From positions 3,423,223-3,487,222 of the forward strand of contig OU015494.1 of NCBI GenBank assembly GCA_907164885.2: a stretch of DNA of 64,000 nucleotides, in the 5' to 3' direction. Shown piece by piece: positions 8,947-60,034 of this stretch; position 1 is the stretch's first letter, and every line of letters begins with the position of its first letter. Below the pieces are notes generated by a model. That model was not told the DNA's origin, searched no databases, and saw only the letters and a program-made list of their open reading frames with translations. This stretch comes from Dolomedes plantarius. Taxonomy: Eukaryota; Arthropoda; Arachnida; Araneae; Dolomedidae. The position numbers were made by a program, and so were the translations under genes.

Positions 8947-8953
8947 TGACTAG
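8947..8953 (+). promoter_or_regulatory. Candidate stop-codon readthrough site, TGA CTAG (copia-A)
   Basis: TGA lies in the same frame as the integrase/MBD tail upstream and the RT domain downstream. The next four bases are CTAG. The same heptamer sits at the equivalent place in copia-B, -C and -D. UGA followed by CUAG is an established efficient readthrough context in animals. No ATG occurs downstream until 8989. Confidence 0.75.
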
Positions 8954-11236: not shown

Positions 11237-11599
11237 TTTGCTCTGCTCACCTTGTATTCAGACTGGAATGAGCTCCTACACCCAACCATGAATTCTCTAA
11301 ACATGAACACATGCTTCCCAGAAGGAGTGAGAGAGGGGTGCTTTTGGACAGTTCGTAAATCACATGACAACATGGTAGGTGCAATAGAGGGATTCCACAC
11401 TCGCACTAAGAAATTCGATCCACCAGGGAAGAATGTTCGATCTTCCGAGAAACAGTAATCCCCCCCCCCTCCCCCGGTTTTTTCCACTGCATCAAGTCTA
11501 TGATTGCAACAAACATAAAGGAAATTCCGGGTGTGTTTTTGAAACCAAACTCCCCCACAGAAAATAACCCTCCAGTAGATAAAATGTTGAAGAAAAAGT

Positions 11600-18051: not shown

Positions 18052-18331
18052 TGTCAAGGTAATTAAATAAATTCTAAATCTGCCTTTATCTGTAATTAAT
18101 TTGAACTAATATTGTTTAATTCCCCTGGACGTGACTTTTTTTGCCCGTTAAATAATTATGTTGTTTTTCACGTAGGTAGATACGTATGTTTGAACATATA
18201 TTTTGCTTATCTTCCCATAGCTTGCGAGAGTTCACCTCACACTGAAACACAGTGTATAAACATAGTATGTATTTCTCACCTCCCCCTCCCCACTTCCCAA
18301 AACGCACCCGGCAGGCTATTTAGCTGCAGAA

Positions 18332-18928
18332 GGTATTGAGTGGAAGTTTATTCCACCAAGAGCCCCACACTTTGGCGGCCTTTGGGAGGCAGCGATTAGG
18401 TCATTCAAATATCATCTAAAAAGAGTTGTTAAGGGAATAAATTTAACTTATGAAGAGTTCTTAACTGTGATTGTGCAAATTGAGGGAATTTTGAATTCTC
18501 GACCTCTTTGTCCTTTGTCAGCTAACGAGGACGATTTTGAGGTTCTTACTCCAGCCCACTTCTTAATAAATAGGTCTCTAACCTCTTTAAATGAGCCTGA
18601 TTTGACAATTTTGAAGGACAGTCATCTCAAGAGATGGCAAAAGGTTACTAGACTTGTACAATATATGTGGAAATTTTGGCATCGTCATTATTTGAGTCAA
18701 TTACATCAGAGATCTAAATGGATGTTCGAGAAAAACAACATAAAATTAGGAGATTTAGTGTTATTAATAGAAGATAATTTGCCTTGCTATAAATGGGCTA
18801 TGGGTAGGATAATTAAAATTTATTTTGGTGATGATAAGAAAATTCGTGTTGTTAAAATTAAAACACAGTCTAGTACTTGTAAAAGAGCCATTTCAAAAAT
18901 TTGTGTATTACCTATGGAAAACAATTAA
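18332..18928 (+). pseudogene. BEL/Pao Pol C-terminus (integrase end, DUF5641-type tail)
   Basis: The frame is open from about 18332 to a stop at 18926-18928. It begins with EWKFIPPRAPHFGGLWEAAI, the classic integrase landmark of BEL/Pao elements, then LNSRPLCPLS, LTPAHFLINR and a tail ending in RWQKV...YMWKFWHRHYLSQL and GDLVLLIEDNLPCYKWAMGRI, the chromatin- or DNA-binding C-terminal domain of these polyproteins. The catalytic Asp residues are upstream and missing. It is 5' truncated within the hAT element and followed by a 3' LTR. Because the start is cut, this is a fragment. Confidence 0.9.
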
Positions 18929-24410: not shown

Positions 24411-27400
24411 TTAAAAACACAAAGATAAGAACAAAAAAAAAACCTCAACGGAAAAAAAAGGGATGTGGACATCTATCAGAACTCCCACTATATCTTTTAT
24501 TACTCTTTTACTATAATAGTCAATAAAGAGTTTGTGTTTACTCCAGCTTGTGTAATCTGGGGGAAATCTTTCTCTATAAGCCTGTAGATCGACACACTCA
24601 TAGATGCAATGCTCTACAGTCTGTTTCTCCCCACACCAACATTTATTATCTTTCTTAAGCATTCTGTGCTGGTCCATTCAATACTCATTCAATACGTCCA
24701 TTCAATACTCATTAAATCTTTCCATTTTCTTATTCTGCTTGTTCTTACTTCACAATTTTCACTATTCAATACTTCATCACCTATTTCACTCTCTACACCT
24801 TCATCATATATTTTAAACATTTTACAATTTATTCTTGCTTTCAGATGCAGTGGCATACAGCCTGATAGTACATTTAGCGCATCCGTAGACACGGTTCTAT
24901 AACATTTCGTTATAGCCAACATAAATGGTCTCTGTGTTTGTTTCAATTTTCTATCAATAACTACACCTTCGTTATACCAAATTTCCACAGCATACAGTAG
25001 TATTTTCCCAATTACAGTGAGGTAAATTTGTTTTATAATGCCGCCCCGTATTCCCCATGTCTTTTTAATAATTCTCGTTAATTTATAAAAGAACTTTAAT
25101 GATTTTTCCTTAACCATATCCAGATGCTGTAAATATTTCAACTTGCAATCAATTAATACCCCTAAATACTTTAATTCTTTATGATACTTATAATTTCACC
25201 CGCCAGCTTAATTGTTGGTTTGGTTTTGATAATACCTTTACTAGCAACTATTGTATAAGCACACTTATCAATACTGACATTCAATTAATTCCTATTTGCC
25301 CAATCGTAACATCTATTCAATACTTCTCTTGAAATTTCCTTAAACTTATAACTACCCTTACTATTAATCATTATCATTAGGTCATCAGCAAAGGCTTGCA
25401 TAAACCAATTATTACTGTAACTATCAATGTCTAGTAATTCGTTAATTATTATGAGCCACAATATAGGGTTCAGAGAAGATCCCTAAGGGACCCCTACGTT
25501 GTACTCATGCTCACCACTTCTCATAATAACTTTTCTATCTCTAATATAACTAATTATTAATTTATAAAACTTAGGTTCAATCTTTAATTTATTTAACTCC
25601 CTTATTACATTACTACTTCTCACAGTATTAAAAGCATTCTTAATGTCCAAAGAAATAAGACAAGTATGTTCATCCCTACTTTTATTTTCATAAATTATTT
25701 TCTTGATGTTATTGAACGCATGAAGAGTGCTCAGGTTCCTTCTGAACCCATATTGTGCTTTCGATAACAAATTGTTGGATTCCAAATGCGTAACCAGCCT
25801 ATTTGTAATTATTTTATCGAGTATCTTACCCAATACAGGTAGCAGACATATAGGCCTATACGAACTCTGAAGTAATGGATCTTTCTCCCTTTTTCTAAAA
25901 TAAATAACCTTAGCCTTCTTCCATTCCTTTGGAAAGTAACCGTCGTTCAAACATCTATTACATAAGCAGTACATCACTCTCTTATTAATATTATATGTTT
26001 CTTGAATAATACTTAGTGTAAATCCCTCATATCCAGGTGCTTTGCCTTTTGACATTTCACTCATAGTTAATTCAATTTCAGGATTAGTTATTTTAATAGA
26101 ATTTTCACTATCATCACTCACTTCCGTGTCCTCTTCCTCCTCTACAATCCTATTAAAATGATATTCTGTTATAACTCGTTCTATTTCTTCTTCATTATCC
26201 ACAATAACCCCCTTTAAATCCTGTACTCTTTCGATTACATTTTGTCTTTTATCAGAAATGATATTCGTTACTGCACCAAAAGTATCTTTCACAGTTAATT
26301 TATCTAAATATTCCTTGAAAGTACTTCTTTTCGCATTATTGATCAACGTCTTATACCTTGCACTCTCTTCTTTGAATTTAATCAGCCTATTCTTTCTATC
26401 TTGGGGGTCAGTCGTCTTTTGATACAATCTCCCAAGTGCTCTCACTTTACTTCTTTTTATTCTTAAGTCCTCATTCCACCAATAAGCGTTGGACTCAGTC
26501 TTCTTGTTTCTTTTCTTCCTATGTTTCTTACATAATTTCGTAATTTCCTCATTAAATTTCTCTATTACACCATCAATGCTCATTTCTTCCATTTCTTGCT
26601 CTAACGTTTCCATTACTTTTCTAAGTTCCATTCTAAAATTCCACCATCTCATATTCTTTATCTCCCATCTTGGATCATTATCTCTTCTTTTACTTACATC
26701 ATCCATTACTATATCAAATCATATAGTGTTGTGATCTGTCAGTACATACTCATCTACCACTCTCCACCCTCTTATGTACTCTTGCGTCATTCCAAAAGTA
26801 ATTGTCAAATCAGGCCAGCCTTGTCCTGCTGGACCATAATAAGTAGGTAAGCTTGTAGGGTCATTGTGTATAAAGCAATCTAATCTAATCACTAAATCTA
26901 TTATTGCAGCTCCCCGTACGTCAGTGGGCCTCCTTCCCCAAACCGTAGACTTTGCATTAAAATATCCTAATAAAACAATTTTCTTTCCTTTATTTCTCTT
27001 TAGAATATCTAGCAGCTGATCCCACTGTAGATCAACTCTCTCCATTTTCCCACCTGCGGGTGGTAAATAAATAGTTATAAATAAAATTTCTTTATCACCA
27101 TTTCCACACTTTATACTCACCAAATATTCCGTGTTAATCAAATTAACATACTTGATACTTCTTTTAATGATTAACGCCGCTTTAGGTTCATGACAAAAAT
27201 AGATACTCTGATAGTTACTCGGGAAACCTATGTTTCTCACCCCTTTTAAAATAGGGTTCGCTTGCAGAAATGATATCGAAATTTAAACTACTTGCAAATT
27301 CCTTTACTGCATTAATAGACTTATTAAAATTAAGATGTGTGTATTTACACACAACAGGATTGCCATAGTCAGAATTAAAAACAAAACTGTGTGAACCACC

Positions 27401-28664: not shown

Positions 28665-29888
28665 CACACTGAAGTGCCACTGAATTAGGGACAGCAAAGC
28701 CTATGCAAATTGTGTAGCACTGCGCATCATGTATGCGCAAGTCAGGGCGCTATGGTAACTGCATATATAGCGCGTACTGTGGTTGTTCTGAATTAGTTGT
28801 TGGAATTGCCAGTATGGGTAAACTGCCTGATTTTAGACGCCTTCGATCGTGGACAAATCGTAGGTGCGCCACGCATGGGCCATTCAATTTCCGAAATCGT
28901 CAGACAGCTAGGATTTTCAAGATCGACAGTGTCAAGAGTATACCAAGAATACATGGATGGTGGAAAAAAAAATAGCGATCGGGCAAACTGCAAAGGACAA
29001 TTAGCCTTGACAGTGCGTGGTGAGAGACGGCTCAGGCGTATTGTACGTAGCCAGCGAAGCCAAACATTAGCTCAAATTACCACCCAGTTTAATGACGGTG
29101 CCAGTCGTACAGTCAGTAAACGGACTGTGCAACGCTCGCTTCACCGTATGGGTTTCGGGAACGGTCGACCTACGAGAGTACCATTGCTCTATACTCGCCA
29201 TCGGGCTGCACGTCTTGTCTGGGCAAGAGAGCACAGAGACTGGGGTGTAGAGGACTGGAAACGAGTAGCATTGAGTGATGAGTCTCGATTCCGACTACTT
29301 AACGCCGACGGGAGGCTGAGAATATGGCGTCAGGCTCATGAAGCCATGGATCCTGCATGCCTGGCTGGAACTGTACAAGGGCATGGTGGCTCAATCATGG
29401 TCTGGGGTGTTTTTTTTGTGGTACAGTTTGGGATCTTTGGTGCGTGTACCAACCTCCCTCAATGCAATTCGGTACGTAGAGTTGCTGGGGGATCACCTCC
29501 ATCCGTTTATGTTGTTCTGTTATCCGCACGGTAATGGAGTTTTCCAGCAAGACAACTGTACCTCTCACAAGTCCCGGTTGGCTACTGGCTGGTTGGAAGA
29601 GCATTCCTCTGACTTCTCTGTCATGAATTGGCCTCCTAGAAGCTCAGACTTAAATCCTATTGAGCATCTTTGGGATGTTTTGGAACAAGGCGTGAAAGGC
29701 CATCACACAGCACCAAAGAACCTTACTGAATTATGGACAGCTTTAGCCAATATTTGGCAAGCCATTCCCGTGGAACGTTTCCAGAAACTTGTTGAATCTA
29801 TGCCTCGTCGTGTGGCAGCCGTTATCAAGGCCAGAGGAGGCCCAACTCGTTACTAGGTAGGTATCCCTAATTCAGTGGCACTTCAGTG
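28665..29888 (+). mobile_element. Tc1-type transposon, full length
   Basis: The ends are inverted repeats: CACTGAAGTGCCACTGAATT, extending to TAGGGA, with the outer base pairs next to TA at the right (29889-29890) and near TA at 28663-28664 on the left, where an extra CA lies. The transposase gene fills the interior. It sits exactly at the 5' end of the minus-strand LINE. Confidence 0.88.
28814..29856 (+). pseudogene. Tc1/IS630-family transposase, two frameshifts
   Basis: The family start MGKLPD is at 28814; one extra base soon after (T run near 28833) moves the rest into the frame open at 28797-29534. Landmarks: HTH region (RMGHSISEIVRQLGFSRSTV), second HTH (SKRTVQRSLHRMGF), LSDESRFRLLNADGRLRIW (first Asp), SIMVWGVF. 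A T8 run at about 29410 shifts the frame again; the second frame (29338-29856) holds VFQQDNCTSH (second Asp), SSDLNPIEHLWD (Glu) and KARGGPTRY at the end. By hand count 36 residues separate the second Asp and the Glu, wider than the DD34E of classical Tc1. Two frameshifts inactivate it. Confidence 0.9.
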
Positions 29889-33280: not shown

Positions 33281-33376
33281 TTGAACGAAGTTCTTTTACG
33301 CGGCTTACAGTAGAGTGAACTGGCAGAAATCGTCACGTAACGAAAAAGCGTTATGCCCCTTACAGGTGACCTTCCG
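33281..33376 (+). repeat. tRNA-related repeat, copy 1, 5' head
   Basis: About 80 bp starting GAACGAAGTTCTTTTACG and ending AAAAAGCGTTATGCCCC match 45054-45133. Copia-B is inserted directly after TTCCG at 33372-33376; the rest of this repeat resumes at 40802 after the duplicated TTCCG. Confidence 0.8.
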
Positions 33377-34340
33377 TGTTAGGGAAAATCCCGATTAGCT
33401 TTCCTCTTCTTCCCCTAACCTTCCAGCCACGTAGCAAGAGCGATGTATTTACATCATTTCCCACCTCCACAGCAATGTGTAAGCATCGTCAGACGCCAGT
33501 TGCGTCATGCCAGCTTAACGACGTCATTCATCCAACGATGACGCCATACCATCAGTTAAGAGTGACGTCAACGCACATCGCGTAAAAATTAGCATAATTA
33601 ACTTTGCTATTCTCCTGCCACGAGGGAGCGCGGCGGTCGACGCCGGTATAAATACCCAGCCCGATCACTTAGACGAAGTAGTATTCGACGTTGTAGTAGA
33701 CGGTAGTATTAGACGGTGCGGGTGAGTGATAGTTGCTGGGAACCGATGAGGAGATGATCTAGCACGACTCAGCGCAGCTCGTTTTGAAAGCCAGGCTCTA
33801 CAGAGGACCCGTATTAGGAGGCGGCGACCAACTTGCCAGCAGTGCACTGATGCTCTAGTCGTCTCGACCTTGCATGCCCGCAGGTAGCCACGGGATGGTT
33901 TTTGTGCCAGGAAGGCACTATCTACTTTAAGTGTTTTTTTTTTACCACGATGGTAAAACCTTGCCTCGACCAACTGTGAGTACTATTTTATTTTCTTCTA
34001 CACCTCGGCGAGAACACCCGAAAGCCAACGTTTTTGAATAACACTACGAGCTGTGTAGTGCGTCTGTAAACAAGACACTTTAATGTCGTTTTACTAAATA
34101 AATGTATTTTTTATTTTACCTAAACCTTCGTACGTCCTTTTAACATCTTGCATATCACACAACAAAGCTAGCTAGCGTTGCTCTGACTATATCTAAAGAT
34201 TAAGAGTCCAACCTTCCCTGCTAGCCAGTACGACTCTGCACTCTTAGCTATCAGGAAAGTTTGGGGCATTCCTGCCCCCAAATCCTAACTAATTTTTGGT
34301 TGGGAGAGCCGCCAGGTTCTAGCGGCTCAATTCCGTAACA
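33377..34340 (+). repeat. Copia-B 5' LTR
   Basis: Begins TGTTAGGG and ends CGTAACA. U3 holds a cluster of CRE-like sites and a TATA box (TATAAATA, 33647-33654) with a TCACTT initiator-like motif about 16 bases on; the polyadenylation signal AATAAA is at 34097-34102. Nearly identical to 39839-40801. Confidence 0.97.
33487..33670 (+). promoter_or_regulatory. Copia-B LTR promoter: CRE-like cluster and TATA box
   Basis: Five CGTCA/TGACG half-sites lie within 85 bp (33487, 33503, 33522, 33539 and the full palindrome TGACGTCA at 33563-33570), then TATAAATA at 33647-33654. TGACGTCA is the consensus for CREB/ATF-type bZIP factors. The copy in the 3' LTR is at 40025-40032. Regulation by bZIP factors is inferred. 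Confidence 0.6.
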
Positions 34341-34344
34341 TTTT

Positions 34345-34355
34345 GGTTATGGGCC
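34345..34355 (+). other. Copia-B primer-binding site (initiator tRNA-Met half-molecule type)
   Basis: GGTTATGGGCC, four bases after the LTR, is complementary to the anticodon-stem-loop region of metazoan initiator tRNA-Met rather than to a tRNA 3' end. Drosophila copia is known to prime from a 5' half of this tRNA. The site sits in a small GGGCC/GGCCC hairpin. The 34356-34636 leader has no gene. Confidence 0.85.
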
Positions 34356-34636
34356 GCAGGCCCTAAAGTTAATTCGTAAACAACTATTTTTCTTTAACTT
34401 GAGGGTGACTTTGATCTAAAATAGCAGAGCACAACGCGAAAGCTTTGTGATATGTGAGAAGCTAAGCGTCGAAGGTATAAACAAAAAGTAAAGGCCCTGA
34501 ATTTATGAAATTCTATATTTGGGGGGGGCCTATTTGTATATATATATAATATTTAGTGTTTTAAATACTGTCTTGCATTTTTTTTATATGCTTATATATA
34601 TATATAGATTTACATACTGTACTTGTAACTTAAAAC

Positions 34637-37450
34637 ATGGCCTCTTTACAACCCCATATGGCTATAGATAAATTGACCGAGGAAAATTTCCATACCTGGG
34701 TAGCAGATATTAAATTTGTACTAATATCCCTTAATGCGTGGGACATTGTGAATAACCGCGAAACTAAACCGATAGCAAGTGCGGAAAATTTAGCTGAGGT
34801 AAGGGACTTTGAAAGAAGAACCCGACTCGCTTTATCTACAATCTTTTTAAACCTATCCCCTGCGTTTAAGTCGGTCGTGGAACATTGTACCACCCCCCAG
34901 GACACATGGTCAACCCTAAATAGGCATTTTCAGCCTGACAGTCGTAGCCGGCACATGCAATTATTTACCGAACTGGTTAATTGTAAGCCCTACGCTAGCG
35001 AGAAAATTAACATGTTTGCGGCACGAATCCGCAAGTTAAACGAAAGCCTAAAGGGAATAAATCAAGAAATAAATGAGACTTACCTCTGTTTCCAGCTAAT
35101 CCGGTACTTACCATCGGAGTTTGATCACTTAGTGCAAACTATACTTCGTTGGAAAGATGCGGAATTTAAATTTGAAGCCATCCTAACTGAACTAGTCGCC
35201 GAAGAAACCCGAATTAGCGTGCAGAGACAGGATAAGCGTGAAAACGCTACTTGCGAAACGCAGAACACCTTTTCGGGTCGGCATAATTCTCGAAGTTGGA
35301 ATAAAGACAATTTCCGACCGAAAACTCCATCGAGAAGCCCTTCTCCCAACAAACAAGTCCATTTTGGGAAATACCCAAGTGGGAAATCACCGGGGCGTAG
35401 AAAATCTAAACGCTCGTTCCGGCGAAACTCACCAAATAATGAAAAACCCCAGAGCCATTATACTGTAGAAGCCCTATTTACATCTCACAGTAATCCAGGT
35501 GACTGGGTCGTCGACTCAGCGGCAACCCATCATTTTTGTAAGGATAAATTCCTATTTGATGGACCCCTTGAGGATGTAAATGATAGGAGCCTAGCAGTTG
35601 CTACTAGGGGAAAGCCTATCCCTATCAAGCAAAGAGGGCCAGTCGACCTACTTTGTAAGGGCGAGAAACGCGCCATTACGCTTATGCGTGCATTGTATGT
35701 ACCATCTCTAAGGCGCAATATAGTTTCATTACCTTTACTTGACGAAGATGGATTTACTTTTGAAGGGGGAAATGGACAACTCCACGTTTACGATAAAGAT
35801 GGAAAAGGTTATTTCACAGCTCGCAAACAGGGGGGAATTTTTTATGCAAAACAGCAGCTAACCCCAGAACAAGCTGCGAGAAAGAAAGCTTACCAACACG
35901 AGAAAGAAACTCAATCGAAGAAAGGTAAGGCTTACGAAACTACAGCTAAAAAGAAACGAAATACCCTAAGCAAAAGTAATCAAAAACCTGCCAGTGCATT
36001 GAGCAGATGGCACCGCAGAATGGGCCATATGAACCCTGAACTAATCAGCCAGTCTTTTACAAATAAAAGTGTCAGGGGTGCTCAGGAGGTAAAATCATCC
36101 AAACTTTTTTGCGAGGATTGCAGGTTAAATAAAGCTAAACGGGTGACATTTAAACCAATCGGCCAAACTAGGTCAACGAAACCCCTAGAACTTTTACATC
36201 TAGATTTGTGGGGACCTGCTTCAACGACGGGATATGCAGGAGAGAGGTATTTTTTGAGTATCACCGATGATCACTCAAGGAAAATCGCCCTGTATCCGAT
36301 TAAAGATAAGACAGCTACTTTTCCCACCTTTTTAAATCATGTGAAACGTGCCGAAAGATTCCTTTCAACTAAGCTCAAAGCTATCAGAACTGACAATGGT
36401 AAGGAGTTTGACAACTCACAATTCCAAGAGTATTGCCGTACGAATGGTGTGGCCCACGAATTTACAGATATTTATTCGCCTGAAATGAATGGAGTAGCAG
36501 AGAGGTTGAACCAGACAATAGGGAATACCCTCCGCACGATCCTAAATTCAAGTAAGGTTCCAGTAAAATTTTGGCCAGAAGCCGTCCGCTATGCGGCCTA
36601 CAATTGGAATAGAGTGTGCCGTAGAAACCAGACGAAAATACCGTTTGAGAAATACGGAAAGTTCAAACCCTCCATTAGTCACCTTAAACCATTCGGGTCA
36701 GTTTGTTTTGTGGGTGTGCCGAAGCAACACCGAACCAAATTTGATCCCAGAGCTAATAAGGGAGTTCTTGTAGGCTACGCATGTAGGATTAAAGGGTACA
36801 GAGTGTTGTTCCCAGAAACTGGGCGAATAGTCGAAACCCGGAATGTTAGCTTTGCTGAAGATGAACTAAATTTTTATCAATTGAAAGCTAAGCAGACTAA
36901 CAATGGAGCAGTGCTGGGCGGCCATCCAGAAACTACCATATACTCACTTCACAACCCGGAGCTTGAGACGGTGGTAATCCCACATATGGATTCGCGCCGA
37001 GTACATACCCGGAGTTACCAGCAGGATCCCAGACCAGGCCCTAGTTATGCAGTTCAAACTGATGAAGCAAGTGAGGACGAATCAGACAGAGAACTATACG
37101 TCCAAACACCTAGACTCCGAGTCGCTAAGTGGACAAGGGAAGCCGTTCCGAGACCAGATGGAAAGCGGACCGATATATACTATCGAGAAGTTAAAAGGCA
37201 AGGGGGCAAGAGCCACATATTGCGAAGCCTCAAGGAACTCAAGCAATACTGTAAAAAGCATAAAATTGAGTACCAGCCTGAATACTTCAACTTTAGCGGT
37301 AAGAATGGTAGGACGGGCCCTGTTGCAACCCCTCAGCGACAGGTGATTGATGATGATAGCGATCTGGAATCTGAAAGTCAGACGGAAAATGAAGAAATCA
37401 ACTACTTTTCCGCCTATGACACTTCCGAAAGTGAGACTGACACAGCATGA
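34637..37450 (+). CDS. Copia-B Gag-protease-integrase-MBD polyprotein
   Basis: 937 residues, intact. Gag (1-200) has the UBN2-type start (MASLQPHMAIDKLTEENFHTW) and WSTLNRHFQPDSRSRHMQL. Residues 205-280 are Arg/Ser/Lys-rich with no CX2CX4HX4C zinc knuckle, unlike copia-D. Protease: active-site Asp293 in WVVDSAATHHF. The integrase zinc-binding part has H459, H464, C492 and C495; its catalytic triad is D523, D586 and E622 with 35 residues between the last two. Residues 832-888 form an MBD-like module (WTREAVPRPDGKRTDIYY, LRSLKELKQYC, YFNFSG). An acidic tail then runs to a TGA followed by CTAG. Expected to assemble virus-like particles and integrate cDNA; the MBD may guide integration. The start is the first ATG after the leader, at the usual Gag start. 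Confidence 0.96.
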   Translation: MASLQPHMAIDKLTEENFHTWVADIKFVLISLNAWDIVNNRETKPIASAENLAEVRDFERRTRLALSTIFLNLSPAFKSVVEHCTTPQDTWSTLNRHFQPDSRSRHMQLFTELVNCKPYASEKINMFAARIRKLNESLKGINQEINETYLCFQLIRYLPSEFDHLVQTILRWKDAEFKFEAILTELVAEETRISVQRQDKRENATCETQNTFSGRHNSRSWNKDNFRPKTPSRSPSPNKQVHFGKYPSGKSPGRRKSKRSFRRNSPNNEKPQSHYTVEALFTSHSNPGDWVVDSAATHHFCKDKFLFDGPLEDVNDRSLAVATRGKPIPIKQRGPVDLLCKGEKRAITLMRALYVPSLRRNIVSLPLLDEDGFTFEGGNGQLHVYDKDGKGYFTARKQGGIFYAKQQLTPEQAARKKAYQHEKETQSKKGKAYETTAKKKRNTLSKSNQKPASALSRWHRRMGHMNPELISQSFTNKSVRGAQEVKSSKLFCEDCRLNKAKRVTFKPIGQTRSTKPLELLHLDLWGPASTTGYAGERYFLSITDDHSRKIALYPIKDKTATFPTFLNHVKRAERFLSTKLKAIRTDNGKEFDNSQFQEYCRTNGVAHEFTDIYSPEMNGVAERLNQTIGNTLRTILNSSKVPVKFWPEAVRYAAYNWNRVCRRNQTKIPFEKYGKFKPSISHLKPFGSVCFVGVPKQHRTKFDPRANKGVLVGYACRIKGYRVLFPETGRIVETRNVSFAEDELNFYQLKAKQTNNGAVLGGHPETTIYSLHNPELETVVIPHMDSRRVHTRSYQQDPRPGPSYAVQTDEASEDESDRELYVQTPRLRVAKWTREAVPRPDGKRTDIYYREVKRQGGKSHILRSLKELKQYCKKHKIEYQPEYFNFSGKNGRTGPVATPQRQVIDDDSDLESESQTENEEINYFSAYDTSESETDTA

Positions 37451-37454
37451 CTAG
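37448..37454 (+). promoter_or_regulatory. Candidate stop-codon readthrough site, TGA CTAG (copia-B)
   Basis: The TGA ends the 937-residue frame, and the same frame stays open for 495 codons beyond it into RT-RNase H. CTAG follows the TGA directly. In an element this young, with otherwise intact frames, a random stop is unlikely. The same heptamer is in copia-A, -C and -D. No ATG lies between the TGA and 37526. Confidence 0.85.
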
Positions 37455-38938
37455 AAACTGTAGTCATCCCGAAAACCTTTAAACAAGCATTCAAAAGTAA
37501 AGAATCTAAGCTATGGAAGAAAGCGATGGAAGAAGAATTAAAAGTGTTAAGTGAAAGGGGTGCATGGAGCCTAGTACCGCCACACTCAAAGTACAAGCCT
37601 CTCGGTTGTCGGTGGGTTTTTACAACCAAAACCGATGAGCATGGAAATGTGGTAAGATACAAAGCGAGGCTCGTAGCACAAGGCTACAAACAGGTAAAGG
37701 GAGAATCCTATGATGAAACTTTTTCACCTGTAGTCAATTTCACCCTTATACGCCTATTTTTCTCCATGCTAGTTTCCAACCTAAAGTGGTATCACCTCCA
37801 GTTAGACATCAAATGCGCGTATTTATACGCACCCTTATCTGAAACCATTACTATTACCCAACCACCCGGTTTCGTAGAAAAAGGAAAAGAAAGCTACCTC
37901 TGTCTACTAAAGAAAGCCCTTTATGGCTTACACCAGAGCGGAAGGGTATGGTTTTATGAAATCGAGAATATATTACTTGAAAATAATTTTAAGAAAATTA
38001 ACTGGGCTAACTGTGTTTACCATTTATCAAATAATCTAATTTTACTTTTATACGTAGACGATATAGTTCTTTTTGGAAAAACTAAAACCCATATTGAAGC
38101 AGCAGTTAAAATTCTGCAGAAGTGTTTCGACATTAAAATACTTGGTCAAACTTCTAAGTTATTGGGGGTTGAATTCGAATTCAATCGAAAACAAGTTTTC
38201 ATTCACCAAACCCAATACATAGATCAAGTTGCTAAACGCTTCAAAACCTTCAATATCCCAATTGTATCCTTACCCATAGCTAAAGGAACAATATATACCA
38301 AATTACAAAGCCCTACATCTGAACCTGAATTAACGGAAATATCAAAACTACCGTATCGAAATATTCTAGGGTGTTTAGCATTTATCGCAAGTCGAACTAG
38401 ACCCGACATTGCGTATGCTGTAAATATCTTCAGTCAGTTTCAGTCTAACCCAGGATTTGCTCACTGGTACGGTCTATTGAAGCTATTAGGGTATGTAATA
38501 GGTACAAAAGATTTAAAGCTAAATATTTCCTCTACCACTAATGAATTAACAGCTTACAGTGATAGCGATTTTGCCGCCAATCGAGACGACCGAGTTTCAA
38601 TTTCCGGTCAACTCATTTTACTAGATAAATCGCCTATATTCTGGCGAACTGGCAAGCAAAAGGCCATAGCGCTGTCAACTATGGAAGCTGAATTCATGGC
38701 TATAACAGAAACCAGCAAGGAAATACTGTGGATCAACCGTATAATGCAAGAATGCGAAAAATTGAAGATAATCAAGCTAGCTAGATCCAAACCCCTTATC
38801 AGAACGGATAACTTATCTGCAATAGACTTCTTAAAATCGCCGATTGAAAATAGTCGCACTAAGCATATTCATATAAAGCTTCTTTTTGTGCGTGATCTCC
38901 TTCTAAAAGAAGTTTTTCGAGATAAAATTCGTGCCTAG
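37451..38938 (+). CDS. Copia-B reverse transcriptase and RNase H
   Basis: Copies element RNA into DNA and degrades the RNA. RVT_2 domain: GCRWVFTTKTDEHGNVVRYK, LVAQGYKQVKGESYDETF, YGLHQSGRVWFYEI and the catalytic YVDD (38051-38062). RNase H: YSDSDFAANRDD, LSTMEAEFMAITE and SPIENSRTKHIHIK. The frame is continuous with the Gag-PR-IN-MBD frame across the TGA at 37448, so I start it right after that codon; an internal start at 37526 is the alternative but that ATG is not conserved between copies. One extra base near 38918 shifts the frame so that it ends early at 38938; the normal family C-terminus continues in the next frame to a stop at 39027-39029. Whether the truncated RNase H works is unknown. 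Confidence 0.94.
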   Translation, partial: LETVVIPKTFKQAFKSKESKLWKKAMEEELKVLSERGAWSLVPPHSKYKPLGCRWVFTTKTDEHGNVVRYKARLVAQGYKQVKGESYDETFSPVVNFTLIRLFFSMLVSNLKWYHLQLDIKCAYLYAPLSETITITQPPGFVEKGKESYLCLLKKALYGLHQSGRVWFYEIENILLENNFKKINWANCVYHLSNNLILLLYVDDIVLFGKTKTHIEAAVKILQKCFDIKILGQTSKLLGVEFEFNRKQVFIHQTQYIDQVAKRFKTFNIPIVSLPIAKGTIYTKLQSPTSEPELTEISKLPYRNILGCLAFIASRTRPDIAYAVNIFSQFQSNPGFAHWYGLLKLLGYVIGTKDLKLNISSTTNELTAYSDSDFAANRDDRVSISGQLILLDKSPIFWRTGKQKAIALSTMEAEFMAITETSKEILWINRIMQECEKLKIIKLARSKPLIRTDNLSAIDFLKSPIENSRTKHIHIKLLFVRDLLLKEVFRDKIRA

Positions 38939-39825
38939 CAAAAAGAATCTAGCAGATCCGTTCACAAAACCAAAAACAAAAACAGACTTTTCAGCCTTTA
39001 AACAAATAATTTTTAAATCAGAAACTTGAAAGCTAGAAACTTAAAGTAAATTCCTAACTCTAATAAACCGAATTTCCTTAAAATAAGCCTTATCCTTGAG
39101 ACTAGGACGGTTATTAATATGAGTTATATTACTTTCCATTATTTTCTGTTTACGGAACTAACGGCCATTGTTTCGGGTTAGTTCTATGAGAACCTTCTTT
39201 CTCCCACATAATTTGGGAGGGGTTCGCTTAAGTGTTTTCCAGTGGTAATGTGTTTATACATTCTGCATTTTGTCGCATGTGTATTTAATAGTAACTTTAC
39301 CCTTGCATATATTCTGTACTGTGTTTATATATGTACGTTTATGTCTCTATCTAGCATTGTGTTTATATCTACATACTAGCAATAACTGTTTCTATTTTTC
39401 CGTACTGTGTCTATACTTTAATATATTTACTAGTACGTTGTTTGTGACAAGCAAATTGTAATCAATTTTAATATATTCTTAAAGTTTTATGCTATTTAAA
39501 CATCGGAGGGTATGTTATACGCAAATGTTTTTTTTTCGCATGATTGTGTGTATGAAAGTGGGCCCACGAATGTTTTGAATTTTTGTCTGGAAAAATACTG
39601 CGTGTGTATACTTTGCCCTACCTGTTGATGAATTGTATTGCATATTATTTGCCTATTGAATATTGCATATTGAATTGTATTGCATAATTGTTAAGGATTA
39701 TAAGCTATTTTTATAGAAACATGTCAACAGAATATTTATTGTATGTTTATACAAGCGACTTACCCTTACTGTTTTGCAAAAACATGTAACTTAACCACGT
39801 GCATGTGTTGGTGCTCATTTCTGTA

Positions 39826-39838
39826 AAGGGGGGGCAGT
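39826..39838 (+). other. Copia-B polypurine tract
   Basis: AAAGGGGGGGCAGT lies directly before the 3' LTR. The 3' UTR from 39030 is AT-rich, about 800 bp, with no coding signal. Confidence 0.85.
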
Positions 39839-40801
39839 TGTTAGGGAAAATCCCGATTAGCTTTCCTCTTCTTCCCCTAACCTTCCAGCCACGTAGCAAG
39901 AGCGATGTATTTACATCATTTCCCACCTCCACAGCAATGTGTAAGCATCGTCAGACGCCAGTTGCGTCATGCCAGCTTAACGACGTCATTCATCCAACGA
40001 TGACGCCATACCATCAGTTAAGAGTGACGTCAACGCACATCGCGTAAAAATTAGCATAATTAACCTTGCTATTCTCCTGCCACGAGGGAGCGCGGCGGTC
40101 GACGCCGGTATAAATACCCAGCCCGATCACTTAGACGAAGTAGTATTCGACGTTGTAGTAGACGGTAGTATTAGACGGTGCGGGTGAGTGATAGTTGCTG
40201 GGAACCGATGAGGAGATGATCTAGCACGACTCAGCGCAGCTCGTTTTGAAAGCCAGGCTCTACAGAGGACCCGTATTAGGAGGCGGCGACCAACTTGCCA
40301 GCAGTGCACTGATGCTCTAGTCGTCTCGACCTTGCATGCCCGCAGGTAGCCACGGGATGGTTTTTGTGCCAGGAAGGCACTATCTACTTTAAGTGTTTTT
40401 TTTTACCACGATGGTAAAACCTTGCCTCGACCAACTGTGAGTACTATTTTATTTTCTTCTACACCTCGGCGAGAACACCCGAAAGCCAACGTTTTTGAAT
40501 AACACTACGAGCTGTGTAGTGCGTCTGTAAACAAGACACTTTAATGTCGTTTTACTAAATAAATGTATTTTTTATTTTACCTAAACCTTCGTACGTCCTT
40601 TTAACATCTTGCATATCACACAACAAAGCTAGCTAGCGTTGCTCTGACTATATCTAAAGATTAAGAGTCCAACCTTCCCTGCTAGCCAGTACGACTCTGC
40701 ACTCTTAGCTATCAGGAAAGTTTGGGGCATTCCTGCCCCCAAATCCTAACTAATTTTTGGTTGGGAGAGCCGCCAGGTTCTAGCGGCTCAATTCCGTAAC
40801 A
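39839..40801 (+). repeat. Copia-B 3' LTR
   Basis: 963 bp, partner of the 5' LTR; AATAAA at 40558-40563. Followed by the TTCCG duplication. Confidence 0.97.
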
Positions 40802-40960
40802 TTCCGTAGCTTGCTACTGCTGGCTTGTGGCTTTCGCTTTTGGCTCCCACCCTGTCACCGTGAGTTCGATTCCCACTGGTGCGTTGTTTCACCTCCTGCA
40901 CTCGCGGAGGTTCAACTCCGGCTATTCTGCTATTTAAAATCTCAACTTAGTCTTAACTTA
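40802..40960 (+). repeat. tRNA-related repeat, copy 1, body
   Basis: Continues the repeat interrupted by copia-B. It contains a B-box-like GAGTTCGATTCC (about 40861) and a second GAGGTTCAACTCC (about 40907), so it is tRNA-derived, but the tRNA part is unlike that of copy 2 at 45155. Confidence 0.55.
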
Positions 40961-41279: not shown

Positions 41280-42712
41280 CACTGCTCAAAACAATTAGGG
41301 GAGCACATGGTTTTAACGAAATTACGCAAATACTTACACCGATAAGTAACATAAAATAAATCATCCATAATTTAAAGCCTAGCAGGAAACAGAAGAAGAA
41401 AACTTCATATGCAAATCAAAGTTCATGACATCAAAAACCAGAAAAAGAACACAAGGGCGGAAATCGGGATGTTGCAGAAACGTCTGTTTCACTGCCTTAA
41501 CTGTGAAATTCGATTGCTCAGTTATTCTTTTTGAGAAAAGGTGACTTGAAAATGTCTCAACAACGTGATTTGCCGGAATCCATGGCATGACGTATTATAG
41601 GCAGACTTGAATCCGGGCAAACACAACGTAGTATCGCGGACGCTGTTGGAGTCGCCAGAAGTGTCGTTGCAAGGCTGTGGAATCGATTCCAAGAAACAGG
41701 GAATGTTAGACGTCGACCAGGGCAAGGTCGGCCACGCGCCACTACAGCAACTGATGACCGGTATATACTGTTAACAGCTCGTCGAAACAGAACAGACAAT
41801 GCTACTCAGCTGCAAACACAGTTGCTCTTGGCAACAGGACGAAGGGTGTCCAGCCAAACAGTACGTAATAGGCTTCATCAGGGAGGTCTCTGTGCACGCA
41901 GGCCAATGGTCAGCATTCCGTTGACCTCACGCCATCGTGCGGCCCGAAGAAGATGGGCTGCTGAACATCGAGATTGGGAGCAACATGATTGGAGCCAAGT
42001 GCTGTTTACAGACGAGTCCCGATTCAGTCTGGAGTGTGACACCCGACGTGTTTTGGTATGGAGGGAAAGGGACACGCGAAATAACCCCACATTCGTTCGT
42101 GAAAGGTCACAATACAGACGAGCTGGTTTTATGGTATGGGATGGAATCAGCATAGGTGGACGTACGGACCTGAATATCATTCGGAATGGTACTTTGACGG
42201 CCCGAAGGTATGCAGACGAGATACTGAGACCTCATGTCATACCTTACGCTGCAGCCATTGGAGATTCCTTTGTTTTCCAGCATGATAATGCCAGACCGCA
42301 TACAGCTCGTCTTGTGGAGAACATGCTTGAAGCTGAAACAATACAGCGTATGGAATGGCCAGCGTGCTCTCCTGATCTGAATCCAATCGAGCATGTTTGG
42401 GATATGCTCGGATAACGCATTGCTGCGAGACCAAGGCCTCCTTTTACTCTCCGAGACTTGGATATTGCACTTCTTGAGGAGTGGAACAGTATTCCCCAAA
42501 GTCTTATTGATAACATCATCGCATCCATGGAAAACAGGTGTGAAGCAGTCTTAGCTGTTCGAGGAGACCACGCGCCATATTTAAAATCTTGCATCATTTC
42601 TAAACAATACCTTTTTTTATCGTTTACATGTAACCGAATGGTCGCCCAAAATCATCTTTTCATGTTTTTTCCATATTTTCAAAGAATTGAAGCTTAATTA
42701 CAAAATAGAGTT
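41280..42712 (+). mobile_element. Tc1-type transposon (third family), right end lost
   Basis: Begins CACTGCTCAAAACAATTAGG after TA (41278-41279) and carries a nearly complete transposase. No inverted partner of the left terminus follows the gene; at 42713 the sequence changes to another repeat. Confidence 0.82.
41552..42597 (+). pseudogene. Tc1 transposase (DD34E), two nonsense mutations
   Basis: One frame runs the full length from ATG at 41552 (MSQQRDLPESMA). Landmarks: RIIGRLESGQTQRSIADAVG and VARLWNRF (helix-turn-helix), SSQTVRNRLHQGGLCARRP (second HTH), LFTDESRFSLECD (first Asp), FMVWDGISIGGRTDL, VFQHDNARPHTARL (second Asp) and SPDLNPIEHVWDML (Glu, 34 residues after the second Asp). TGA at 41588-41590 and TAA at 42413-42415 are the only breaks, so this copy died recently. 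It ends near RGDHAPY at 42575. Confidence 0.93.
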
Positions 42713-45430: not shown

Positions 45431-48230
45431 TTTATTTTTTTATTTTATAACATTTTTTAATTGTTTTTAGCCTTGGCAAAGCCAAGTATAGTTTAATTTT
45501 TTATTTTTTTATTTTATTTAAATGTCGAGGACAAAGAATTTTAAGACGAAAGACTCAGGATGGCACAAGGCTTTTCCTGTTAGTGGGGTCTGCGTGATCA
45601 TAGTCTGCAAGATTAATTAAAAGTTCACTGTCAATTGAGTTGTGGAAGTTAATAGCTTGATTTTTGAGATAATTTCGAATAGTAGGGATTCCTAACTCCT
45701 TGTAGATACAAGTATTTCTGAAATACCAACTCGCGTTAACGATTTGCCTAATGGTGCAGCTCTGAGCAGAAGCAAGTTTTTTAATATGGAAATTAGCACA
45801 GTATGGCCACGCTAGCCCTCCATAAGTTAAGATAGGACGAAGATAGGCGTTGTAAATGAGCATTTTATTGGCTATGCTTAATTTACTGTTCCGAGAAATT
45901 AAAGGGTAAATTAATCTTCTGGCTGCTCGGAACTTGTCCCTAACATGGAGGATATGATATTTGCAAGTGATATGCTTGTCTAAAACGACTCCAAGGTATT
46001 TAACGGTATCAGACCAGTGAATTTTTGTGTTACCTATTTGATTTTGGTGATTCTTGTATGTCTTTTTACGTTTAGTGGTAAACATGATAGCAACGCATTT
46101 TTCAGAATTAATTTTAATTTTCTATTTGTCGAGACAATTTTGAATAGAGGACATGTGAGTATTGATGTATTTAACAGCATATTTAAAATTTTTATTGGTG
46201 GCATAAAGGGCTGTGTCATCGGAGAAAATTGCAAGATTAGTGTTGGTATTTTGGGGTGAATCGTTTATAAATATGTTAAACAAAATTGGGGACATAGCGC
46301 TGCCTTGAGGGACTCCAGAGAGAATATTAAATTTGCTAGAAAGATGGCCGTTTATTTTTACTTGAAAGGTGCGGCTTTTAAGATAAGAGATTAGGAGGTG
46401 GATTATTTGAGGTGGAAAGTTGTAATTTATAAGTTTATGAATGAGGCCGTCTATCCAAAGTTTATCAAAGGATAGGGAAATATCAAGGAAAAGGGCTGCA
46501 GTGGAGGATTTATTTTTCTTAGCACTAGCGAGGTTTCTAGCAAGGCGATAAACTTGGTGCGGGGCTGAAAGAAATTTTCTGAAGCCGAATTGGTATGGAA
46601 TAATGATTTGATTATCATCGAGGTGCTCGTTAATTTTTATGGCAATAAATTTTTCGGTAATTTTTCTAAGAGAATTTAGAAGGCTGATAGGTCGGTAGCT
46701 GGAAGGAGAGGATTGGGGTTTGTTAGGTTTTAAGATTGGAACAATTATAGAGTTTTTCCAGCTGTGGGGAAATGTTCAAATTTAAACATAGATGATTAAA
46801 ATAGTAATTTTGAAGATGTATTTATAAGGGAGATTTTTAAGCACTGTATTGTTGATGTTATCTTTCCCGGAGAATTTTCTTTTTGGGAGATTTTTAATGA
46901 TATCTTTGACGTCGGCGGGAACAATATAGGGAGTGGGACTTTCGTGAGGGGTGTTTAAGAAGAGGTTAATATTGTTTTTGACTATGTTTTCATTCAGTAC
47001 TTGGGTTAGAGATTTGATTTGGGGTGAAATTTTTCACGAAATTTTTGCCGATAACTTGGCAATTTTCCTTATCCGTGAGAACGTTAGTGTTATTATCGCG
47101 TTTTTTAGGGGGGGGGGATGGTCCGGTATTGATTTTTAAAATGCCTGGTGGCTCTCCAAATGGAATTGTCAGTTGTGTCTAAAGAGTCTAAGTAATTATT
47201 AGGTAAAATCTAAGATGTTCCCGAGTTTTATTCATTATCGTTTTGTTAGTTGTGGTTCTGTTATGCTGCCATGCTTTATGTGCTCTGTTTTTGTTGTTTA
47301 TGAGCATCTTAAGGTGATGGTCGTGGTGTGTTTTAACACGAGGTGGTATTAATTTAGTGCTTTTATTTAAACTATCATTAATATCAGTGGTGATACTTTT
47401 GACTAGGTTTTCCAGATCATTAATATTATTGACAATAGGGGGAATGTAGTTAATGTTATTAAGTTCATTTTTGAAGGTGTCTCAGTTTATTTGTTTCGTA
47501 TGATTGATGATTAAGGGATTTGTGTCAAGGGGGATACGGATTTCAACTGGGTTGTGGTCGGACGTAAGCTCACAGTGGGTATTAATAGAAAGATCATGAG
47601 GGAACCTTTAACTAGAGAAGAGTCAATTATACTATCAGTATTAGTAGAGAAGTGGGTTGGAGAGGTGGGGGCGATAATATCAAAGTTAGTTTTACTAGCA
47701 AAATTATAGATTATGTTACCATAGTAGTTATTAGTTTTACAATTCCAGAGTTTATGTTGGGCATTAAGGTCGCCGAAAATTAAAGTATCTAAATTAAGAG
47801 AGTTTAAAGCATTTAGGTCTGAATTAATTTCATTAGATTTTTGCATAGGTGGGATATAGGTAGAGATGATAGTATAGTGAGGAAGGTTATTTAATTTAAT
47901 GTTGATAGCGGTAGAGTTAAAGCACTTAAGAGGGGGAGAATTATTTCATGGTATGGCAGGGTATTTTTAATTAAGATTGCAGTGCCTCTCATGGGGTAAG
48001 TAGAATTTGTGTAGTCGTTTCTATAGGGGGTGTAGTTGTAGACTTTGAGTTTGTCCACTGGTCTGAGGTGGGTTTCCAGAATTAAAATAAGATCGAGGTA
48101 GTGCTCGTTAACAAACTCCTTGAACTCACGGATTTTAGCATTGATACGTTCCATTCGAAAACAGACAGCGAAAGGGGGCCCATTAACCAGCAGTTTGAAC
48201 ACATTTAAAGAGTGCGTGGAAGAAGCTAAA
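45431..48230 (-). mobile_element. Jockey-group LINE (ORF2 only), minus strand
   Basis: A 5'-truncated non-LTR element running from endonuclease (48202) to the RT C-terminus (45555), then an A-rich 3' end (45440-45550 read on the minus strand) with a CTTGGCTTTGCCAAG hairpin. Its A/T-rich end joins the tRNA-related repeat at 45430. Confidence 0.85.
45555..48202 (-). pseudogene. Jockey-type LINE ORF2: endonuclease and RT, decayed
   Basis: Endonuclease pieces: HYLDLILILETHLRP and RNDYTNSTYPMRGTAILIKN (48202-47891), then LIFGDLNAQHKLWNCK and ILIPT-like sequence (47846-47511), retaining the GDLNA catalytic motif. RT in shifted frames between 47100 and 46085: AALFLDISLSFDKLWIDGL, LSGVPQGSAMSPILFNIFIN and IFSDDTALYAT (catalytic, near 46220). 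The C-terminal part (46085-45555) has VKYLGVVLDKHITCKYHI and LRPILTYGGLAWPYCAN. SDDTALYA and the C-terminal thumb sequence fit the Jockey clade. Stops and frameshifts throughout; the N-terminus is fused to a few non-family residues. Confidence 0.88.
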
Positions 48231-49496: not shown

Positions 49497-51594
49497 TAAG
49501 TTGAAGATTAGTCACAGCTTTAGTAAAGCAGTCAGCAAGGTTTTTCGTTATATGTATATACTTTAAGTTAAATAGATTATCATTAATCAAATTTTTAATA
49601 AAATGTAATTTAGCTGATATATGTTTTGTTTCTGATTTTCTATGAGGGATTTTCAAAAACTGATAGGAGCCTGGTTGTCGGAAAATAAAGTGATTTCAGA
49701 TGGTTTAAATTCAAGAATTTACAAGTGCCTCCGCATTGGAAAAAAAAAAAAAATTCAAGAATTTTGTTATCATAGCACTCATCTAAAATACGTGTTTATC
49801 CAAACCATATCTTTCGATTCCTCAGTAATAGATACATATTCACTTTCTATTGATGAAAGGTCACACATTTCTGCTTGAATGTACGCCAAGCAATAGGGGC
49901 CTTATCGACTAAAAGTAGCTTTCCTCCCATAGAAATTCTATCCTCCCGGTTGGATGCATAGTTGGCATCACTAAAACAAACTAATTCTAACTTATTTACC
50001 CTTGACAACTCAAGTCGGTAATTTTCTGTTTGGTACACATACCCCAGAAGTTTAACAAGTGCATTCCAGTGCGTCATACCGGGGTCTGATTGAAATTGTG
50101 ATAGGATGTTAACGGCGAAACAAATATCGGTCCTAGTTCGGTTAGCAAGAAACGCTAAACACCCTATAGCACTCCGATAAGGAATTTGTTCCATCTGTTT
50201 ACGTTCTTCTTCCGAATCAGTACATTGGTTTTTTAACAGCACTAAGCCTTTAGGAATTGGTAGTGAAACCACCGGGAGCTTAAACTTGTAAAAAAGTGTT
50301 TTCATTCTTCTAATATAGTCCTTCTGGTGAATAAAAATTCTGCCATCAGATTCTTCGATTTCCACCCCCAATATCATTTTAGTTCTGCCTAGTTCTTCCA
50401 AATCAAAATTAGAACTTAGAATTTGCATGATGCGGTCGATACGACTATCATTTTCACAAAAAAATTACAATGTCGTCCACGTATAGCAACAGAACTATAT
50501 GATTTTGATATGTAAAAACACAATTAGCCCAAGAAATTTCATTAAAACCCATTTCAAGCAATTTATTGCTAATGTCAAAGAACCACTCACGGCCGCTTTG
50601 ATGCAGGCCGTATAATGCTTTTTTCAAGCGACAAACTAGGTGTGGTTTTTGGGGGTCAACAAAACCTTGAAGCGTGTCGCTAGGAAAACAACTGTCTGGG
50701 ACTGGAATACTGAATTTCTTGCTTCGTCTAAGGCATTGTGGACAAAAAGATTTTTTCCAACTATTTTTCAGCGTTTAAAGTGTAAGCACTTTTCAACTGA
50801 CTTTAACTTAACGCAAGTTTTAACTGGCCATGGAAATTTCAAGAGCTATTTGATTCATTTTAATTTGGTGACTAGTGGACATTGTACTTGCGGTGATGCT
50901 GATGAAGATGTTGAACATTTTCTTTTTCACTGCAAATTACATGAGAGTGCCCGAGCTATATTAAAGGCGGACTTGAGACGTTTGTTCATTTGTTGGCCTC
51001 CTGTTCTTTCTGATCTCGTTAAGAGTGTTGAAAGTCTTGCTGTCTTGCGAAATTTTGTTTGCAATTTAAGTAAATGTTTAATTTTTCTTGTTTTGTGTTT
51101 TTCACTTACTTCTGTAAGCCTCATGTTATACCTTGTGGTGCATGAGGAGTTTTCAAATGAAACAATAAAAAAAACCTTGAGGTTGACTCCTATAAACGGT
51201 ATCAAAAAATGGGGCATATAAGTAAGCACATTTTATATCAAGTTGTCTATGGGACCATTTCTTTTTAGCCACCAGAACAGTGAAGAACAACCTTATTAAA
51301 GTGAAATTTACTACATGGCTGAAGGTTTCCCAATAAGATTCCCCTTTACACTGAAGAAAACCCTGGGCAACAAGGCGAGATTTAAATCTCATCACCTGAC
51401 CTTCCGAATTTTTCTTCAAGCTAAATACCCAACGATTTCCAACAACCTTGGATTTCTCTGGTTTGGCTACTAGATCCCAGACGTCTCGATCATCCATCAC
51501 TTGTATTTCCTCCTTCACAGATTTATACCATTCATCTGCTTGGGGGGATTCTCAGGGCGGCATTAAAACTCGATGGGATATTGATTTCATCTAG
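49497..51594 (-). pseudogene. Copia-C reverse transcriptase and RNase H
   Basis: N-terminal RT (51518-51200): MDDRDVWDLVAKPEK, GNRWVFSLKKNSEG, LVAQGFLQCKGESYWETF and LDIKCAYLYAPF. The coding sequence is cut in the QGF codons by the LINE fragment and resumes at 50670 with VDPQKPHLVCRLKKALYGL. Catalytic LLYVDDIVIF lies near 50470. Then RTKMILGVEIEES, LPIPKGLVL, ANRTRTDICFAVNILSQF and RNase H FSDANYASNREDR to WRTFKQKC (49860). The end is visible in broken form to about 49497 (DNQAPISF, NLADCFTKAV). Inactive. Confidence 0.93.
50671..51170 (+). mobile_element. 5'-truncated LINE (ORF2 C-terminus) inserted in copia-C RT
   Basis: A perfect 10-bp target duplication AAAACCTTGA flanks it (50661-50670 and 51171-51180). 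The 500-bp insert ends in AACAATAAAA, a polyadenylation signal with a short A tail, on the plus strand. Its frame (in 50640-51221) reads LTQVLTGHGNFKSYLIHFNL and CTCGDADEDVEHFLFHC, the terminal region with CCHC knuckle of I/R1-group LINE ORF2. A textbook target-primed insertion, later than copia-C. Confidence 0.93.
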
Positions 51595-51597
51595 TCA
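51591..51597 (-). promoter_or_regulatory. Candidate stop-codon readthrough site, TGA CTAG (copia-C)
   Basis: On the minus strand TGA (51597-51595) is in frame with the MBD tail and with LDEINIPSSF after it. CTAG (51594-51591) follows. A one-base shift further on (near 51545) is decay of this copy. Confidence 0.75.
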
Positions 51598-60027: not shown

Positions 60028-60034
60028 TGACTAG
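60028..60034 (+). promoter_or_regulatory. Candidate stop-codon readthrough site, TGA CTAG (copia-D)
   Basis: TGA is in frame with the end of the MBD tail and with the RT frame that follows (first ATG 60073). CTAG follows directly. Confidence 0.75.

What the first reader, a model, noticed from the sequence alone, without database searches (positions are those of the whole stretch)
37448..37454. Conserved TGA-CTAG between integrase and RT in all four copia copies: candidate programmed stop-codon readthrough
Seen: at 8947 (A), 37448 (B), 51597 minus (C) and 60028 (D) an in-frame TGA is followed by CTAGA. The bases just before differ (GTTAGA, ACAGCA, TCTGTA, TCGGAA), yet TGACTAGA is identical in copies that are well diverged in protein sequence. 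The frame is continuous on both sides, in copia-B over 937 codons before and 495 after. Known: UGA CUAG is among the most efficient readthrough contexts in animals; SIRE1 of soybean is a Ty1/copia with a suppressible stop, but before an env-like frame. Inference: these elements make RT-RH by readthrough.
Basis: partly seen in the sequence, partly recalled or inferred. Interest (0 to 1): 0.96.

Follow-up and report, generated by a model that had tools for sequence, protein, structure and literature searches.

The report
Jumping genes with a skippable stop
Many families of copia jumping genes in one genome (likely an arthropod's) carry the same in-frame stop signal, UGA nearly always followed by CUA, between their integrase and their reverse transcriptase, and ribosomes likely read past it now and then, which would be how the copying enzyme gets made.

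Summary
In detail: TGACTAGA lies in frame at the integrase/reverse-transcriptase junction of all four window copies. In the young copy B it is the only stop between a 938-codon Gag-PR-IN frame and a 495-codon RT-RH frame.

In three own-genome protein searches no row of 450 has an RT frame of 600 codons or more; 278 have 500-571. In the same genome 31 of 31 scored relatives of a "sense" copia lineage have frames of 1400-1433. With the codon left free, 100 of 100 listed B-family sites read TGA. Of 40 junctions chosen for diversity, 38 have TGA, 36 of these TGA-CTA. Within family B, pN/pS is 0.25 before and 0.12 after the stop.

No conserved downstream RNA structure and no SECIS match were found, so the likely signal is the short UGA-CUA(G) context known from animal cellular genes. 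Readthrough was not measured; internal promoter, splicing or reinitiation remain rivals. Stop suppression in retroelements is known; this position and motif, fixed across a large copia clade, was not found in ten paper searches. New variant of a known kind.

The parts
37448..37454 (+). copy B: in-frame TGA CTAG, the stop between IN and RT (preceded by GCA)
34637..37447 (+). copy B: Gag-PR-IN frame from its first ATG (open frame from 34634); Retrotran_gag_2, Pol_BBD, gag_pre-integrs, rve, SH3_retrovirus
37451..38938 (+). copy B: RT-RNase H frame, RVT_2, 495 codons plus stop
33377..34340 (+). copy B: 5' LTR (TGTTAG...TAACA), 99.8% identical to the 3' LTR; flanked by TTCCG at 33372-33376
39839..40801 (+). 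copy B: 3' LTR; followed by TTCCG at 40802-40806 (target-site duplication)
34345..34355 (+). copy B: likely primer-binding site GGTTATGGGCC just inside the 5' LTR (resemblance to the copia initiator-tRNA site is recalled)
39825..39838 (+). copy B: likely polypurine tract AAAGGGGGGGCAGT next to the 3' LTR
8947..8953 (+). copy A: TGA CTAG at the IN/RT junction (frames of 156 and 183 codons on either side)
51591..51597 (-). copy C: TGA CTAG at the IN/RT junction of a decayed copy
60028..60034 (+). copy D: TGA CTAG at the IN/RT junction; element flanked by LTR matches 55425-55822 / 61775-62170 (94%)

Best explanation
At least 13 families of copia retrotransposons in this genome carry an in-frame UGA-CUA(G) between integrase and reverse transcriptase, which likely works as a programmed readthrough signal: most ribosomes would stop after Gag-protease-integrase and a minority would insert an amino acid at UGA and go on to make RT-RNase H. 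Shown from sequence: the place of the stop, its retention in young copies, purifying selection on both sides, the fixed CTA after it, and relatives with a sense codon in the same genome. Inferred: that the bypass is readthrough by a near-cognate tRNA, driven by the short UGA-CUA(G) context with no need of a downstream RNA structure, and that its point is to keep RT-RH scarce relative to Gag-PR-IN. The stop lies past the conserved IN domains and just before RT, so the short product should be a complete Gag-PR-IN.
For: (1) Retention: own-genome searches with the RT starts of D, A and B gave 150 rows each (150 scored of 4344-4382 first-look candidates); frames of 500 codons or more: 63, 97 and 118 of 150; longest 537, 571, 528; none reaches 600. 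Internal control: P0144, a relative with no stop, finds 31 places (31 scored of 20062), all with frames of 1400-1433, 29 with no stop inside and 2 with one. With the codon free, 190 B-family sites at up to 3 mismatches; the 100 listed all read TGA; 168 exact TGACTAGAAACTGTAGTC sites. (2) 38 of 40 further junctions, picked for diversity, have TGA there, 36 of them TGA-CTA. (3) Nucleotide-level constraint: Leu after the stop is CTA in 12 of 12 family representatives (13 of 13 with C); chance 3e-7 from the CTA share in B's frames (36 of 126), shared ancestry not corrected. Five residues invariant over 12 families use 2-5 codons each. The stop-to-IP spacing varies while TGA-CTA stays put. (4) Selection in family B: 21 of 29 copies, pN/pS 0.254 (IN side) and 0.121 (RT side). 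A/B/D RT starts: pN 0.29-0.31, pS 0.76-0.83, i.e. saturated. (5) Other sources: all 120 listed RT relatives begin after the junction; 23 of 24 listed Gag-PR-IN relatives not from Trichonephila carry no RT. (6) UGA_CUAG gives efficient readthrough in four mammalian genes, about 31% for OPRL1 in HEK-293T, whose last sense codon is predominantly GCA as in copy B (PMC4132726, passages).
Against: No ribosome profiling, proteomics or reporter data: the bypass is not shown. The nearest tested case with a UGA between frames of a copia element (Tca2) showed no readthrough in yeast; an internal promoter was found instead (PMC2194720, passages). Three families (J, K, L) lack A before the stop; D2 and H lack the G after CTA. 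One fetched copy (L069) has TCA, in a copy with two TAA downstream, and one (L080) is rearranged. Before dropping 8 of 29 copies with gaps or extra stops, RT-side pN/pS was 0.53. The B copies used for selection were picked by an exact TGA-bearing 18-mer. In other species the codon itself was not seen, only where the frames end.
Confidence: 0.84

Rival explanations
1. RT-RH is translated from its own RNA, made from an internal promoter or by splicing, and the stop simply ends the upstream protein.
For: Tca2 of Candida, with a UGA between gag and pol, failed readthrough tests and has a promoter at the junction (PMC2194720, passages). Drosophila copia uses splicing to make Gag (same passages). 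CTAG could pose as a splice acceptor.
Against: A separate RNA needs neither the two frames in the same register nor a fixed UGA-CUA; the register is kept in the 38 TGA junctions read. No consistent pyrimidine tract before CTAG (pyrimidine share of the last 20 bases 0.30-0.70 over 13 families); D2 has CTAA and H CTAT, without the AG.
Confidence: 0.07
2. Ribosomes that stop at UGA reinitiate at a nearby downstream AUG and make free RT-RH.
For: AUG codons lie 10-30 codons downstream in most families (sequences); database RT frames were called from such Met codons.
Against: The codons between the stop and the first Met stay coding and aligned with sense relatives (IPxxxxQA); reinitiation needs no in-frame link and no CTA; after a roughly 900-codon frame it is rare in eukaryotes (general knowledge).
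Confidence: 0.04
3. The UGA is recoded in another way: selenocysteine, or A-to-I editing of UGA to UGG.
For: UGA is the codon for both routes; copy B can form a small hairpin around it.
Against: No SECIS among the Rfam matches up to E 5 in 33300-40800; no shared fold among 13 families.
Confidence: 0.02
4. The stop is chance decay or a founder mutation, and RT is supplied in trans by sense elements.
For: Sense copia lineages with long open frames live in the same genome.
Against: RT-side pN/pS of 0.12 within family B and 278 RT frames of 500-571 codons do not fit a dispensable RT; decay would not fix the same stop and the same CTA in 13 families.
Confidence: 0.02

Closest known systems
UGA_CUAG readthrough genes of animals (OPRL1, OPRK1, AQP4, MAPK10)
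   Same: UGA followed by CUAG, first six of the seven bases conserved; GCA or GUA as common last codon; efficient in reporters (PMC4132726, passages)
   Different: Cellular genes with C-terminal extensions; here the part after the stop is a whole enzyme of a retrotransposon, and readthrough is not measured
Tca2/pCal of Candida albicans (Ty1/copia)
   Same: copia element with an in-frame UGA inside its coding region (PMC2194720, passages)
   Different: UGA lies between gag and pol, followed by a purine spacer and a possible pseudoknot; readthrough was not seen in yeast
SIRE1 of soybean (Ty1/copia, Sirevirus)
   Same: copia element that uses a suppressible stop (named in PMC2194720, passages)
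   Different: its stop separates pol from an env-like frame; SIRE1 details otherwise recalled
Moloney murine leukaemia virus gag-pol
   Same: a retroelement that makes its RT by about 5% stop readthrough (PMC2194720, passages)
   Different: UAG between gag and pol with a downstream pseudoknot; here UGA between IN and RT and no conserved structure
Drosophila copia
   Same: domain order Gag-PR-IN-RT-RH; similar primer site (recalled)
   Different: one unbroken frame, with Gag made from a spliced RNA (PMC2194720, passages)

Membership tests
Ty1/copia LTR retrotransposon | order Gag - PR - IN - RT - RH with copia-type domains | tested here: met
   Retrotran_gag_2, Pol_BBD, gag_pre-integrs, rve, SH3_retrovirus, then RVT_2; RNase H has no Pfam row of its own, YVDD and TRPDIAYA are read by eye
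Ty1/copia LTR retrotransposon | LTRs TG...CA, target-site duplication, primer site and polypurine tract | tested here: met
   LTRs 33377-34340 and 39839-40801, TTCCG on both sides, polypurine tract; the kind of primer tRNA is recalled, not tested
Programmed stop-codon readthrough (UGA-CUAG class) | same frame open on both sides with purifying selection on both | tested here: met
   pN/pS 0.254 and 0.121, 21 of 29 copies
Programmed stop-codon readthrough (UGA-CUAG class) | stop and 3' context conserved beyond the protein | tested here: met
   TGA-CTA in 13 of 13 family representatives, CTAG in 12 of 13
Programmed stop-codon readthrough (UGA-CUAG class) | measured readthrough above background | not testable with these tools
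   no translation data held
Structure-driven readthrough (MuLV type) | conserved stem or pseudoknot a few bases after the stop | tested here: not met
   consensus fold empty for 4 sequences and 13 families; pseudoknots and long-range pairing not covered
SIRE1-type pol/env suppression | stop between pol and an env-like frame | tested here: not met
   RVT_2 follows the stop
Tca2-type gag/pol stop | stop between gag and pol | tested here: not met
   PR region and IN lie before the stop
Selenoprotein | SECIS element | tested here: not met
   no SECIS among matches up to E 5 in 33300-40800

The most novel reading that the evidence does not exclude
A large clade of animal copia elements has moved the retroelement checkpoint from gag/pol to IN/RT: a single short UGA-CUA signal, the same context that animal cellular genes use, meters out reverse transcriptase while Gag, protease and integrase are made together, and it has stayed locked while everything around it changed. 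Sense and stop lineages breed side by side in one genome, a natural experiment on what RT dosage is worth to a transposon.
Probability: 0.75. Interest if true: 0.88.

Novelty: new variant of a known kind. Interest (0 to 1): 0.8.

Why it matters
Retroelements are thought to need an excess of Gag over Pol. Here the switch would sit after integrase, so protease and integrase would be as abundant as Gag unless something else separates them, and RT alone would be scarce. If true, that makes RT dosage a regulated quantity of its own, testable by comparing stop and sense lineages inside one genome. It would also show a transposon clade living on the UGA-CUA(G) context of animal cells, giving thousands of natural copies from which the sequence rules of readthrough in arthropods can be learned, and a reason why repeat annotators split these elements in two.

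Tried and rejected
Motif count alone: 5 sites against 1.79 expected is not decisive. Conserved RNA structure: none. SECIS: none. Splice acceptor: no consistent pyrimidine tract, AG missing in D2 and H. Relatives in plasmids: none. IMG/VR: two scans without a confirmed relative. GTDB genomes: six distant relatives at 22-35% identity; the three junctions read are sense. Reading Gao et al. 2003 on recoding in LTR elements: not held. An evenly spaced genomic sample of junctions: not granted. An exact count with the codon free at 0 mismatches did not complete; at up to 3 mismatches stands in for it. The first selection run counted rearranged copies and gave 0.53 on the RT side; redone after dropping L009, L010, L014, L019, L022, L023, L025, L028.

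Full report
What is there. The window lies in an unnamed 2.78 Gb assembly (G000, contig C13). It holds four copia copies. Copy B spans 33377-40801: LTRs 99.8% identical over 966 aligned bases, TG...CA ends, TTCCG target-site duplication, polypurine tract, hence a recent insertion. Its coding part is two frames in the same register with a single TGA between them: 938 codons with Gag, Pol_BBD (the protease region), pre-integrase, integrase core and SH3-like domains, then 495 codons with RVT_2. The same TGACTAGA stands at the homologous place in A, C and D. These have further stops and are older; D's LTR match is 94%.

Is the stop fixed? Three own-genome protein searches used RT starts from D, A and B. 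Each scored the best 150 of 4344-4382 first-look candidates. The tool reports the open frame around each match. I read this as running from the nearest stop before the match to the nearest stop after it, with stops inside the match read through, because place C1:191354930 shows 525 codons although L010 of the same place has a stop 45 codons in. Frames of 500 codons or more: 63, 97 and 118 of 150; longest 537, 571, 528; none of the 450 rows reaches 600. A locus may appear in more than one list. Shorter frames do not show the state of the junction: the copy behind L069 has 414 codons and a TCA there. The control is inside the same genome: P0144, a relative without the stop, finds 31 places, all with frames of 1400-1433 codons, 29 with no stop inside and 2 with one. 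Two of these junctions were read; both are sense. With the junction codon left free, 190 B-family sites match at up to 3 mismatches (reversed-pattern control 1); the 100 listed, all with 0 mismatches, read TGA.

How old and how tight? Forty junctions chosen for diversity were read. Thirty-eight have TGA, one TCA (L069), one is rearranged (L080). After TGA: CTAG 31, CTAA 3, CTAT 2, TTAG 2. By their junction sequences I sort them, with A-D, into 13 families A-M. Twelve (C left out) share 37-80% (median 47%) of residues in the first 45 codons. In those 12 the Leu after the stop is always CTA, against 36 of 126 Leu codons in B's frames; the chance figure of 3e-7 ignores shared ancestry. Five residues invariant in all 12 use 2-5 codons each. 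The distance from the stop to the IP motif varies (E: LEIP; D: LEKEIYIP), so the motif belongs to the stop, not to the protein. Ten of 13 have A just before TGA. Between A, B and D synonymous sites are saturated (pS 0.76-0.83) while pN is 0.29-0.31.

Selection. In family B, 21 of 29 copies (8 dropped for gaps or extra stops) give pN/pS 0.254 over 398 codons before the stop and 0.121 over 382 codons after it; with all 29 the figures were 0.245 and 0.528. All but the window copy were found by an exact motif that includes TGA, so this shows that TGA-bearing copies keep a working RT, not how common TGA is.

Other species. Of 6989 RT relatives the 120 listed all begin after the junction, but full-length polyproteins were outside that search's length range. 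The IN search, whose range includes them, lists 24 proteins not named Trichonephila clavipes; 23 carry no RT, one (P0144) does. Six pairs of Gag-PR-IN and RT frames come from contigs of identical length (5455, 5194, 4800, 4531, 4472, 3825), so probably the same contigs. The 96 Trichonephila rows are gene models; those read at the junction are sense (EALMVEVTIP). A third search finds full-length sense relatives. On a tree of 154 RTs rooted on four outgroup rows (three named plants, one unnamed), the sense rows lie mostly at the base and the split rows need at least 3 changes; starred branches force only 1, so a single origin of the stop is not ruled out. An earlier, unrooted tree of 126 rows drew the sense rows as a nested clade. 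The codon itself was not seen in other species.

Mechanism. No consensus structure follows the stop in 4 sequences or 13 families; single-sequence z-scores run from -2.05 (D) to 1.64. No SECIS. UGA_CUAG is a tested context: four mammalian genes with it read through efficiently, OPRL1 at about 31%, UGA best of the three stops (PMC4132726, passages). I infer readthrough driven by the short context, with Gag-PR-IN as the main product and Gag-PR-IN-RT-RH as the minor one. The chief doubt is Tca2, where a similar-looking UGA was not read through in yeast and a junction promoter was found (PMC2194720, passages).

Literature. Ten searches list no paper on a stop between IN and RT of copia elements. 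The library holds open-licence papers only. Passages read: PMC8556966, PMC6238403, PMC4132726, PMC3587641, PMC4131045, PMC2194720; of the rest only listings were seen.

Host. Unnamed; the named close relatives are from spiders (Araneus, Trichonephila), so an arachnid is likely but untested.

Noticed in passing
G000:C2:81872054-81876271 and 30 further places: The same genome holds sense copia lineages with unbroken 1400-1433-codon frames (56% and 51% identical to P0144), living beside the stop-bearing families.
   Followed up: partly
window 34634-37447 (copy B, around codon 294): The protease region of copy B reads VVDSAATHH, i.e. DSA where many copia proteases have DSG/DTG; P0122 has ILDSAA. 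No CCHC zinc knuckle was found by pattern in B, though four of the five relatives' patterns checked beside P0122 and P0121 show one (P0130, P0136, P0141, P0144).
   Followed up: partly
L065, L067, L073: A sublineage of family D has TGA CTAAAA instead of TGA CTAGAA, a natural variant of the context; the place of L065 keeps a 531-codon RT frame.
   Followed up: no
window 241-248 (minus): A fifth TGACTAGA, in a frame full of stops, not copia-like: a chance match.
   Followed up: yes
G000:C7:77094253-77104072 and C1:27933920-27952962: Evenly spaced copies of junctions (about 4.9 kb and 6.2 kb apart) suggest tandem or nested arrays of whole copia elements.
   Followed up: no
window 38939-39838: About 900 bases lie between the end of copy B's RT-RH frame and its 3' LTR; the longest open stretch in six frames is 70 codons.
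   Followed up: no
P0265, P0270, P0272, P0275, P0277: Several related copia polyproteins carry a precomputed MBD domain (PF01429), an unusual addition.
   Followed up: no
window 10427-11257, 18266-18925, 25483-27282, 28797-29531, 41591-42412, 46125-46775: The rest of the window is largely other repeats: Tc5/CENP-B-like and Tc3-like transposases, a DUF5641 piece and RVT_1 pieces.
   Followed up: no
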